Positions 19,893-45,444 of a DNA stretch of 50,557 nucleotides are shown piece after piece (position 1 is the stretch's first letter; every line of letters starts with the position of its first letter). The position numbers and the translations under genes were made by a program. The notes below the pieces were generated by a model. That model made no database searches, was not told where the DNA came from, and was given only the letters and a program-made list of their open reading frames with translations. Origin of the DNA: an uncultured Cytophagales bacterium (GTDB taxonomy: Bacteria; Bacteroidota; Bacteroidia; Cytophagales; UBA9547); contig CAMFLX010000016.1 of the NCBI GenBank assembly GCA_945957555.1, positions 1 through 50,557 of the forward strand, read 5' to 3'.

Positions 19893-20474
19893 ATGGATAA
19901 GAGTATTTATGTAATAGCGGGATGTAATGGAGCAGGCAAAACAACTGCTTCGTTTACGCTTTTACCTGAGATTCTTAACTGTAAGGAGTTTGTTAACGCC
20001 GACGAAATCGCGAGGGGCCTGTCCCCTTTCCAGCCCGAAAAGGTGGCTCTTGAGGCGGGTCGTCTCATGTTGACACGCATCAATCATTTGCTACACTCTG
20101 GCGAAAACTTTGCTTTTGAAACCACTCTTTCCACGAGAAGCTATGTGAGCTTCTTGAAGAAAGCCAAACAAGAGGGTTACAATGTAGTACTCTTGTTCTT
20201 TTGGCTGAGAGATGTCAATCTAGCTATAGAAAGGGTAAAAGTACGCGTACAAGAGGGTGGACATTATATCCCTGAAGAGACGATCAGAAGACGATACTTC
20301 AACGGTATAAAAAACCTTTTTGATTTGTATTTGGATGTTGTGGACGAGTTTATGATTATTGACAATTCAAATGAACAACCAATCATTATAGCTTCTGGGG
20401 CACCCAACTCGTATAGCATTATAGACAAACAGAGATTTGAAGAATTAAAAAAATATAATGATGAAAAACTATAA
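19893..20474 (+). CDS. Zeta-toxin-family P-loop kinase
   Basis: A 193-residue ATPase/kinase of the zeta-toxin type. It has Walker A AGCNGAGKTT near residues 9-18, the NADEIARGLSPFQPE motif, FETTLSTRSY with the acidic and Thr residues typical of the family, and a C-terminal RRRYFNGIKNLF helix. Zeta toxins phosphorylate UDP-N-acetylglucosamine or nucleotide sugars and are held by an antitoxin; many chromosomal relatives remain uncharacterised. It overlaps a 50-residue gene at its 3' end and is followed by an AbiH-family gene, which supports a toxin-antitoxin or defence role. Confidence 0.8.
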   Translation: MDKSIYVIAGCNGAGKTTASFTLLPEILNCKEFVNADEIARGLSPFQPEKVALEAGRLMLTRINHLLHSGENFAFETTLSTRSYVSFLKKAKQEGYNVVLLFFWLRDVNLAIERVKVRVQEGGHYIPEETIRRRYFNGIKNLFDLYLDVVDEFMIIDNSNEQPIIIASGAPNSYSIIDKQRFEELKKYNDEKL

Positions 20475-20610
20475 ACCAACTGAGACGCATACTAAAGTAG
20501 AGAAAGGCTTGAAACTCGTTACCATTAAACTACTTGAATTCAAAAAACGAATGAATAGCGAATTGGTGGTTCTTGAGAACGATAAGATTGTGAGAATCAA
20601 GCCAGAGTAA
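20458..20610 (+). CDS. Small protein overlapping the zeta-toxin gene, candidate antitoxin
   Basis: A 50-residue open frame starts ATGATG at 20458, overlapping the last 17 nt of the zeta-toxin gene in another frame. The product is basic and probably helical with a beta end (KGLKLVTIKLLEFKKRMNSE, then LVVLENDKIVRIKPE). The overlap suggests translational coupling. Size and position fit a cognate antitoxin, although epsilon-type antitoxins are longer and normally upstream. The alternative is a spurious frame. Confidence 0.5.
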   Translation: MMKNYKPTETHTKVEKGLKLVTIKLLEFKKRMNSELVVLENDKIVRIKPE

Positions 20611-20647: not shown

Positions 20648-21700
20648 ATGAATCACCTCGTTATCATTGGTAATGGCCTAGACTTAGCTTATGGCTTAAA
20701 AACTAGCTACATGGATTTTATTCTTTGGTACCTGAATAAAGCAATCAATATTTATAACAATTCTAACATACATGAAGACGACCTATTAGTTATAAAACCA
20801 ACACATTCAAATCCGATAATTAAACAGTTAGAGCCTATTAAAACCTTGGATGAATTCCAAAAGATTATTAACTATTCAAGTATAAATTCTTTATCAGTAC
20901 TACCAAATAACTTCCTATCGGGACTAATCAAAAAAGGTATTGATACAAAATGGATCGACATAGAAACACATTATTTCGGATTATTAAAAGCTGCATATAG
21001 ATTTTACAAAAATGGAGACATCCCAACAGGCCACGAACTTTTGATAAATATAAATAAGTCATTAAGTACAATGACAAAAGAGCTAGAGAAATACCTTACC
21101 GAAATTGATGCAACAGGCAAGCATATCACTCAAAAAAAGTTTAATAGACTGTTTCAGAGATTTAACCCTCACGAAAATAAAAACAATTACAATGAAGTTT
21201 ATTTCTTGAATTTTAATTACACATCAACCATAGAACCCTATATGAAAAATCTCAACTGGACACCAACGACTAATTACATTCATGGACAATTAAATAATCC
21301 TGAAAACCCCATTATATTTGGCTATGGCGATGAAACAGATGAGCATTATGAAGAAATGGAAAAGTTAAATATCAACGAATTCTTAACCCATTTTAAATCT
21401 TTTGGCTATTTCAACACTCCAAACTACCAACAACTGTTAAAATTTATAGGCGGTAATGCATTCACTGTATCAATCATTGGCCACTCCTGTGGACTATCTG
21501 ACAGGGTACTATTCAAAAGTATTTTTGAACACCCACACTGTCATTCTATTGAAATACATTTTAGAGAGAGAGCTGACGGCACTAACAATTACATCCAACT
21601 TACCCACGAAATTTCAAGACACTTCAGTGACAAATCAAAGATGCGCAAGATCGTAAAGAATATAAAGGATTGTAGATCCCTGAAACAACTTTTCGAATAA
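20648..21700 (+). CDS. AbiH-family (phage abortive infection) protein
   Basis: A 350-residue protein of the AbiH family, first described in lactococcal abortive infection. The N-terminus HLVIIGNGLDLAYGLKTSY is the family's glycine-rich motif, and later blocks are EVYFLNFNYTSTIEPY, IHGQLNNPENPIIFGYGDE and VSIIGHSCGLSDRVLFKSIF. The biochemical activity of AbiH is not known. It lies 37 nt after the small gene of the zeta-toxin pair and is followed by a strong terminator. Codon use is AT-rich and unlike polA, which suggests acquisition. Confidence 0.85.
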   Translation: MNHLVIIGNGLDLAYGLKTSYMDFILWYLNKAINIYNNSNIHEDDLLVIKPTHSNPIIKQLEPIKTLDEFQKIINYSSINSLSVLPNNFLSGLIKKGIDTKWIDIETHYFGLLKAAYRFYKNGDIPTGHELLININKSLSTMTKELEKYLTEIDATGKHITQKKFNRLFQRFNPHENKNNYNEVYFLNFNYTSTIEPYMKNLNWTPTTNYIHGQLNNPENPIIFGYGDETDEHYEEMEKLNINEFLTHFKSFGYFNTPNYQQLLKFIGGNAFTVSIIGHSCGLSDRVLFKSIFEHPHCHSIEIHFRERADGTNNYIQLTHEISRHFSDKSKMRKIVKNIKDCRSLKQLFE

Positions 21701-44247: not shown

Positions 44248-45444
44248 ATGGCAACACTAAAGATCGTATTCAGGAAGGACAAAATCAACAAGCGGGGCGA
44301 ATGCCCGATCCACTTCCGCATCACCAAGGACAGAAAGCCTAGGTACATAGCCTCTGGCATCATGGTTCCCGAGCAAGCATGGGACGAGAAGAACACAAGG
44401 GTAAGGCCGAGCGTCCAGAACAGCGCAAGGCTCAACGCCCTGCTACAGACAAAGTTTGCCGAGGTACAGGCTATGTTTCTGGAATCCGAGACCGTGGACA
44501 GGTCTTTGTCATCCACACAGATCAGAGACAAGGTAAATGGAAAAGCAAGCATAGGGTTCTTTCCCTTTGCCGACAGAATGGTGAACCGTTTCAAGGATCA
44601 GAAGAAAATCGGAACGTACAGGGACAGGATGGGCATCATAAACAAGCTGGAACGTTTCCTTGGGAACAGGAACGCATCGTTCTCCGACATCACCCATGCC
44701 GTTCTGGAACGTTTCACCGAGTATATGCGTACCGAACTGGGCAACAAAACGAATACCATCACCCACAACCTCAAGTTCCTGAAGGCCGTCTACAACGAGG
44801 CACTGCGCAAAGAGGTGATAGAGTACCACCACAACCCTTTCAGGCAGATCAAGTTCCAGACGGAAAAGACCCAAAAGGGCTTCCTTACCGAACCAGAACT
44901 GGAATCACTGGTAAAACTGGAACTTTCGGGCAATCCCCAGCTTGAAATGTACAGGGACATGTTCCTTTTTGCCTCCGAGACTGGCGGTGTAAGGATTTCA
45001 GACCTACTACAGCTCAGGTGGGAAAAGATCGACGGATCGCACGTACACTTTACCACACGCAAGACCAAGGGGCAGATGTCGTTGAAATTGCCGAACAGGT
45101 CTTTGGAGATCATTGAGAGGTATAGGCGCAAGACTGGCTACCTGTTCCCAGTACTTGACGAGGAAATGGATACGGAAGATGCGGAACTGCTCCACGATTC
45201 CATACAGGAGGCAACATCGAAGGTGAACAAAGGTCTCAAGGAACTCTCCAAACTCGCAGGGATCGACAAAAAGGTGACCACCCACATAGGAAGGCACACT
45301 TGGGCAACGAGGGCATTGAGAAAGGGCATACCCGTGGAGAAGGTATCGAAGCTCATGGGACACTCTACGATCCTTATGACCTTGGACTATGCCAAGATCG
45401 TGAACGAGGATCTGGACAGGGCAATGGACGTGTTCAATTCATAG
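44248..45444 (+). CDS. Tyrosine recombinase (integrase) of Bacteroidota mobile elements
   Basis: A 398-residue site-specific recombinase. It has an N-terminal arm-type DNA-binding domain (about 1-90, IVFRKDKINKRGECPIHFRI), a SAM-like core-binding domain (about 105-200) and a catalytic domain (210-398). Catalytic residues are all visible: R249 (GGVRISDLL), K274 (RKTKG), H346 and R349 (HIGRHTWATRAL), H372 (GHSTILM) and Y381 (LDYAKI). It appears intact. Its GC-rich codon use differs sharply from the neighbouring chromosome and from the RiPP genes downstream but resembles that of the HTH gene at 47907, so these two are probably one module. Confidence 0.93.
   Translation: MATLKIVFRKDKINKRGECPIHFRITKDRKPRYIASGIMVPEQAWDEKNTRVRPSVQNSARLNALLQTKFAEVQAMFLESETVDRSLSSTQIRDKVNGKASIGFFPFADRMVNRFKDQKKIGTYRDRMGIINKLERFLGNRNASFSDITHAVLERFTEYMRTELGNKTNTITHNLKFLKAVYNEALRKEVIEYHHNPFRQIKFQTEKTQKGFLTEPELESLVKLELSGNPQLEMYRDMFLFASETGGVRISDLLQLRWEKIDGSHVHFTTRKTKGQMSLKLPNRSLEIIERYRRKTGYLFPVLDEEMDTEDAELLHDSIQEATSKVNKGLKELSKLAGIDKKVTTHIGRHTWATRALRKGIPVEKVSKLMGHSTILMTLDYAKIVNEDLDRAMDVFNS

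What the first reader, a model, noticed from the sequence alone, without database searches (positions are those of the whole stretch)
19893..20610. Zeta-toxin kinase with an overlapping 50-aa gene
The small gene starts 17 nt before the toxin gene stops. Known zeta antitoxins are longer and upstream, so a tiny downstream partner would be a new arrangement. AbiH follows, so the two pairs may form a defence patch.
Basis: partly seen in the sequence, partly recalled or inferred. Interest (0 to 1): 0.58.

Follow-up and report, generated by a model that had tools for sequence, protein, structure and literature searches.

The report
Zeta-type kinase with tiny partner
A bacterial kinase of the zeta-toxin family overlaps a 50-residue gene that is kept beside it in its close relatives and in a few relatives is even welded onto it, so the tiny protein is most likely the kinase's built-in brake (antitoxin), a design that existing protein-family libraries do not name.

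Summary
The kinase (19893-20474) passes Pfam's Zeta_toxin cut-off. The 50-aa frame (20458-20610) overlaps its end by 17 nt; the start usual in relatives would give 14 nt. The small gene is real: all 80 nearest relatives fetched carry a homologue at the kinase's 3' end, 78 of 80 overlapping it, with pN/pS 0.18. It is predicted as one helix plus a beta-hairpin and has no credible Pfam, NCBIfam, PADLOC or PDB relative.

Beyond the finding: related helix-hairpin partners lie upstream of other zeta-type kinases and are fused to the C-terminus of three. The kinase tree suggests one change of gene order and two fusions. Several kinases are broken beside an intact partner. Best explanation: a type II toxin-antitoxin module whose tiny protein inhibits the kinase by direct binding; toxicity is untested.

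Corrections: a downstream partner is not new for zeta-fold kinases (AvrRxo1:Arc1), although that partner is all-helical and lacks this motif; AbiH is not part of the conserved unit (0 of 80). Verdict: new variant of a known kind.

The parts
19893..20474 (+). Zeta-family P-loop kinase, 193 aa (putative toxin): P-loop 10-GCNGAGKT-17, Asp37, Glu76, Arg118, His124
   Evidence: Pfam PF06414 E 3.8e-12, 46.5 bits against cut-off 22.3; those residues invariant in 49 aligned relatives except C11 and A14; AlphaFold pLDDT 91.3; Foldseek and VIA matches to AvrRxo1, zeta, PezT and Pnkp kinases
20458..20610 (+). Small partner, 50 aa (49 aa if started at the second ATG, 20461): helix 9-31 plus beta-hairpin 36-47; putative antitoxin
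   Evidence: homologue in 80 of 80 kinase loci; pN/pS 0.18; AlphaFold pLDDT 90.7
20458..20474 (+). 17-nt overlap of the two genes (14 nt from the second ATG), fitting translational coupling
   Evidence: direct reading; start overlaps the kinase in 78 of 80 relatives
20648..21700 (+). AbiH-family gene, 37 nt downstream on the same strand; neighbour, not part of the conserved unit
   Evidence: Pfam PF14253 E 9.9e-28; absent near the kinase in 80 of 80 relatives; the only AbiH match in its own genome
21710..21748 (.). Terminator-like inverted repeat after AbiH; the three genes could share one transcript (inference)
   Evidence: number of terminator-like sites not above shuffles (1 found, mean 1.3)

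Best explanation
A type II toxin-antitoxin module in which the zeta-family kinase is the toxin and the 50-residue helix-hairpin protein is its antitoxin, made from the same message by translational coupling and holding the kinase inactive by binding it directly. Shown: two conserved overlapping genes, purifying selection on the small one, an intact kinase active-site set, homologous partners in upstream, downstream and fused positions, and partners that outlast broken kinases. Inferred: that the kinase is toxic when free; that the small protein inhibits it, probably by covering the nucleotide or substrate cleft as epsilon, PezA and Arc1 are reported or predicted to do; that the antitoxin is the less stable component. 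The substrate is probably not UDP-N-acetylglucosamine, because the GTXR motif of zeta is absent.
For: 80 of 80 relatives carry the partner, including one titled Ignavibacteria (L023). In a separate sample of 395 genomes, 31 small-protein hits at E up to 3e-5: 22 beside an intact kinase, 6 beside a broken kinase, 3 without one; of the 25 kinases with E up to 1e-70, 24 have a recognised partner. C-terminal fusions L160, L168, L169 without a separate homologous partner ORF; fused domain against the Bacteroidota partner family hhalign E 7.8e-6, 0 of 60 column shuffles as high. Partner homologous to upstream partners elsewhere. Kinase broken with partner intact in six cases: L025, L038/L115, L108, L191, L195, L196. 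The same pattern, arc1 intact behind all avrRxo1 homologues including pseudogenes, is reported for AvrRxo1:Arc1 (PMC4938570, passages). PezT-Mtb (Rv0366c), similarly short and without GTXR, is reported as a bacteriostatic toxin (PMC6362051, section 6 and passages). Kinase acidic (pI 6.0), partner basic (pI 9.8).
Against: No toxicity, binding or inhibition was measured. The broken-kinase pattern is weak by itself: the kinase gene is about four times longer, so six of six has probability about 0.25 by length alone (my arithmetic), and in a seventh locus (L132/L197) both genes are damaged. Three partners have no kinase within about 1.5 kb (L122, L126, L130), so the partner can persist alone. L089/L156 has only a helix-like ORF in that place. 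The small protein has no recognised DNA-binding domain, unlike many type II antitoxins.
Confidence: 0.66

Rival explanations
1. The small protein is an activating or specificity subunit (or folding partner) of a non-toxic metabolite or polynucleotide kinase; the pair is an enzyme, not an addiction module.
For: The UNAG-binding GTXR motif is absent in 80 of 80 relatives. Fusions fit a subunit as well as an inhibitor.
Against: Zeta-family assignment by Pfam; patchy occurrence and differing genes after polA in relatives fit accessory, toxin-like genes; partner retained without a working kinase.
Confidence: 0.2
2. The pair is a phage-defence (abortive infection) toxin-antitoxin unit working together with the adjacent AbiH.
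For: AbiH lies 37 nt downstream on the same strand; toxin-antitoxin modules often act in defence (general knowledge).
Against: AbiH absent beside the kinase in 80 of 80 relatives; no PADLOC match for kinase or partner. Other defence genes near the relatives were not scanned.
Confidence: 0.1
3. An effector and its chaperone, as AvrRxo1 and its partner were first described.
For: Closest Foldseek match is AvrRxo1 with its downstream partner.
Against: 193 aa with no N-terminal extension; the VIA match covers only residues 151-370 of AvrRxo1. The conserved partner is not Arc1-like.
Confidence: 0.03
4. The 50-aa frame is a chance ORF in the kinase's 3' region.
For: None found.
Against: 80 of 80 conservation and pN/pS 0.18.
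Confidence: 0.01

Closest known systems
AvrRxo1:Arc1 (zeta-fold kinase with downstream antitoxin; PDB 4z8q-4z8v)
   Same: Zeta-fold kinase (Foldseek E 4.2e-9, rank 1); antitoxin gene directly downstream; antitoxin kept when the toxin gene is broken (PMC4938570)
   Different: AvrRxo1 is 414-422 aa in the table rows shown and a type III effector; Arc1 is 81-98 aa (up to 121), 3-4 helices with a KExFD...YExxYY motif; here 193 aa, and 50 aa helix plus hairpin without that motif
epsilon/zeta and PezAT (1gvn, 3q8x, 2p5t)
   Same: Kinase fold (VIA Z about 15), P-loop, catalytic Asp, conserved Arg
   Different: Antitoxin upstream (order recalled), about 90 aa epsilon; PezA joins an HTH to a three-helix bundle (PMC4803016, passages); kinase about 270 aa with the UNAG-binding GTXR motif
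PezAT-Mtb, Rv0366c-Rv0367c
   Same: Short (197 aa) zeta-family kinase, P-loop GPNGAGKS, Asp36, Glu75, Arg116, His122, no GTXR (PMC6362051); the window kinase has the same set at 10-17, 37, 76, 118, 124
   Different: Antitoxin upstream, 129 aa with predicted RHH. I did not align the two sequences
EzeT (E. coli)
   Same: Zeta-like kinase with the antitoxin in the same chain, as in fused relatives L160, L168, L169
   Different: EzeT's antitoxin domain is N-terminal (PMC4826407, passages); here C-terminal in the fused relatives, and separate in the window

Membership tests
Zeta toxin family (Pfam PF06414) | Score above Pfam gathering cut-off | tested here: met
   46.5 bits against 22.3
Zeta toxin family (Pfam PF06414) | P-loop, substrate Asp, conserved Arg | tested here: met
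   G10, K16, D37, R118 invariant among 49 relatives; Asp-containing motif in 80 of 80, P-loop pattern in 76 of 80, R..GGH pattern in 79 of 80 (two of the P-loop misses are stop codons)
epsilon/zeta - PezAT module | UNAG-binding GTXR motif in the kinase | tested here: not met
   pattern EGT.R in 0 of 80; the window reads ETTLSTRS at that place
epsilon/zeta - PezAT module | Upstream three-helix-bundle antitoxin of about 90 aa | tested here: not met
   upstream gene reads as polA; partner downstream, 50 aa, helix plus hairpin
AvrRxo1:Arc1 | Partner gene immediately downstream | tested here: met
AvrRxo1:Arc1 | All-helical Arc1 with KExFD...YExxYY motif | tested here: not met
   motif absent by reading; model has a beta-hairpin
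EzeT-type fused toxin | N-terminal antitoxin domain in the kinase chain | tested here: not met
   193-aa kinase without N-terminal extension; relatives L160, L168, L169 fused at the C-terminus
Type II toxin-antitoxin system | Two adjacent co-oriented genes conserved as a pair | tested here: met
   80 of 80
Type II toxin-antitoxin system | Toxicity of one protein, neutralised by binding of the other | not testable with these tools
   needs expression and binding assays
AbiH (neighbour) | Score above Pfam gathering cut-off | tested here: met
   98.4 bits against 30.9

The most novel reading that the evidence does not exclude
An unnamed, widespread family of tiny (about 50-70 aa) helix-hairpin antitoxins serves zeta-like kinases that act on a substrate other than UDP-N-acetylglucosamine. 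The family sits upstream of the kinase in many lineages, moved downstream once in the ancestor of a large clade in Bacteroidota and beyond, and was fused to the kinase's C-terminus at least twice, so the same inhibitor works from three genetic positions.
Probability: 0.42. Interest if true: 0.68.

Novelty: new variant of a known kind. Interest (0 to 1): 0.52.

Why it matters
Kinases annotated 'zeta toxin family' are common (597 plasmid records match this one alone), yet the sampled relatives have no epsilon or PezA recognised beside them, so whether they are toxins and what restrains them is open. A conserved partner of about 50 residues, found upstream, downstream and fused, gives a direct test: express the kinase with and without it. 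If it inhibits, it would be an unusually small protein antitoxin for a kinase, and natural fusions offer a ready single-chain target for solving the inhibited structure. It would also let annotation pipelines name a gene now left as 'hypothetical' or missed.

Tried and rejected
Chance ORF: rejected. Defence patch with AbiH: not supported. Membership in epsilon/PezA or Arc1: not met (membership table). Foldseek search of the small model against PDB gave nothing below E 2.4, and the A1 profile against PDB sequences nothing better than E 0.69: no fold claim is made. The profile of kinase alignment A4 finds PezT in PDB sequences only at E 1.2, so the kinase-zeta link rests on Pfam and on structure. 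The decay asymmetry was considered as strong evidence and downgraded because of gene length.

Orientation claim: the upstream partner sets U/Us used were picked by eye for the hairpin motif, so I repeated the test with profiles built only from downstream and fused members on 1,858 frames of 28 loci. With the all-downstream-and-fused profile, domains at E below 0.5 fell on the kinase's strand just upstream of it in 4 loci (L185 8e-4, L170 0.008, L099 0.13, L103 0.46) and just downstream in one (L188 0.48). The profile of three downstream members gave 6 loci at E up to 0.58, all just upstream (best L099, 6e-10). The Bacteroidota-only profile gave nothing convincing (best 0.32, L188 downstream; one hit, L097, was on the other strand). 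Upstream partners of L171, L173-L176, L180, L182 and L097 look purely helical and L098 is annotated prevent-host-death; I left these out of the partner family. Tree support for the single order change is 92 (SH-aLRT, quick search), below the tool's star.

Literature: ten searches of open-licence PMC papers found no report of this small partner; most subscription papers are not in that library. Passages only were read of the papers opened, plus one section of PMC6362051.

Full report
What is there. A 193-aa kinase gene (19893-20474, +) is followed by a 50-aa gene (20458-20610, +) that overlaps its end by 17 nt. The small gene starts ATG ATG; relatives most often overlap by 14 nt (32 of 80) or 17 nt (15 of 80), so the second ATG may be the start. 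The kinase passes Pfam's cut-off for Zeta_toxin (46.5 bits against 22.3); it has no useful NCBIfam match and no PADLOC match. The small protein has no match in Pfam, NCBIfam or PADLOC; scanning 53 family members against Pfam gave only scattered weak hits (best E 0.0032 in one member), and nothing credible turned up in PDB.

Is the small gene real? I scanned 84,980 species genomes with the kinase alone. The best 80 of 540 confirmed loci were kept. All 80 have a homologous small ORF at the kinase's 3' end, and in 78 of 80 its start overlaps the kinase. The record titles are mostly Bacteroidota (Flavobacterium, Chryseobacterium, Cyclobacterium, Pedobacter, Bacteroides and others) with one titled Ignavibacteria; I did not classify every one. 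Small ORFs evolve as proteins: pooled pN/pS 0.18 over 135 non-independent pairs (the 89 of 94 small ORFs with profile E below 1e-6 were used). These 80 are close relatives (58-68% identity), so the number describes that clade, not all zeta kinases.

A second, separate sample of 395 genomes of the phylum was searched with both profiles. The small-protein profile gave 31 good hits (E up to 3e-5). Checked against the kinase hits and by reading the loci, 22 lie beside an intact kinase, 6 beside a broken one and 3 without a kinase within about 1.5 kb. In the other direction, of the 25 kinases with E up to 1e-70, 24 have a recognised partner; the exception (L156, also seen as L089) has a 47-aa ORF in the same place that reads as a helix without the hairpin.

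What the partner looks like. AlphaFold with 52 aligned sequences gives one helix (residues 9-31) and a beta-hairpin (36-47) with mean pLDDT 90.7. The kinase model (pLDDT 91.3) matches AvrRxo1, zeta, PezT and bacterial polynucleotide kinase; VIA Z-scores of 16.6 (Pnkp), 15.7 (AvrRxo1) and 15.5 (zeta) are about tied. The P-loop Lys, Asp37, Glu76, Arg118 and His124 are invariant among 49 sequences. The zeta GTXR motif for UDP-N-acetylglucosamine is absent in 80 of 80. The same combination was described for the M. tuberculosis toxin Rv0366c, whose authors infer another substrate (PMC6362051, section 6).

Three positions for one partner. Among distant kinases the partner also occurs downstream in L166 and L167 (IMG/VR contigs), L161 and L164, L090 and L091, and on a Persephonella plasmid (L190). 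In Paenibacillus, E. coli, Vibrio and several Bacteroidota-phylum kinases a small gene upstream ends in a similar hairpin. Profile comparisons support one family: Bacteroidota downstream against other downstream E 8.8e-10; against the fused domain E 7.8e-6; downstream L090/L091/L190 against upstream E 1.4e-8; Bacteroidota downstream against upstream directly only E 0.0025. In every comparison 0 of 60 column shuffles reached the score. The upstream set was picked by eye, so I repeated the search with profiles lacking it; the hits concentrated just upstream of the kinases (details in Tried and rejected). On the kinase tree the downstream and fused kinases (with two kinases of unassigned partner, L188 and L189) fall on one side of a branch (SH-aLRT 92), the fusions arise in two places inside it (L160; L168/L169), and three changes suffice for the three positions. 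The upstream part of the tree has long branches, so the direction of the change is not shown.

Function. A gene pair kept together, overlapping, with one partner an intact zeta-fold kinase, is the anatomy of a toxin-antitoxin module. Fusions argue that the two proteins touch. Kinases are broken beside an intact partner in six cases: L025 (stop codon at P-loop Gly13), L038/L115 (the same codon; the two loci read alike and are counted once), L108 (stop at Ser20), L191 (internal deletion), L195 (several frame breaks) and L196 (N-terminal remnant). In L197 both genes are damaged. I found no intact kinase with a visibly broken partner. Gene length alone would give six of six with probability about 0.25, so this only leans towards toxin and antitoxin; but the same pattern is reported for avrRxo1:arc1 (PMC4938570).

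Setting. In the relatives of the same family whose fetched sequence runs past polA, the next gene differs and the kinase is not there, and the window kinase groups with Flavobacterium-type kinases rather than with two kinases of its own family (L085, L088): an accessory, probably transferred module. G+C falls from 0.45 in polA to 0.40 (kinase), 0.35 (small gene) and 0.32 (AbiH). AbiH is 37 nt downstream and a terminator-like repeat follows it, so one transcript is possible, but AbiH is beside the kinase in 0 of 80 relatives.

Novelty. Downstream antitoxins of zeta-fold kinases are known (AvrRxo1:Arc1) and so is a cis antitoxin (EzeT, N-terminal; PMC4826407). New as far as my ten searches of the open library show are the tiny helix-hairpin partner family, its presence in three positions, and its near-universal pairing in this clade. 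I therefore call it a new variant of a known kind. Its role as antitoxin is an inference that one expression experiment could settle.

Noticed in passing
L205 (G003), downstream of polA: A second copy of the last 84 codons of polA lies downstream of the full gene with a 145-aa ORF between them, as if something inserted at the polA 3' end and regenerated it. No such duplicate in the window.
   Followed up: partly
L025, L038/L115: Two isolates of different genera (Flavobacterium denitrificans, Algoriphagus boritolerans) have a TGA stop at the same P-loop glycine codon of the kinase, with the partner intact.
   Followed up: partly
L122/L193, L126/L192, L130/L194: Small-partner genes with no kinase within about 1.5 kb; possible orphan antitoxins.
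   Followed up: partly
L171, L173-L176, L180, L182: Other zeta-type kinases have a short upstream partner (about 53-65 aa) that reads as purely helical; possibly another antitoxin type.
   Followed up: no
L102:2073-2276: A Cupriavidus plasmid zeta-type kinase is followed, with overlap, by a short gene annotated DUF6884 domain-containing protein.
   Followed up: no
window 44248-45444: ORF that reads like a tyrosine recombinase (by eye, not searched), suggesting a mobile element near the window's right end.
   Followed up: no
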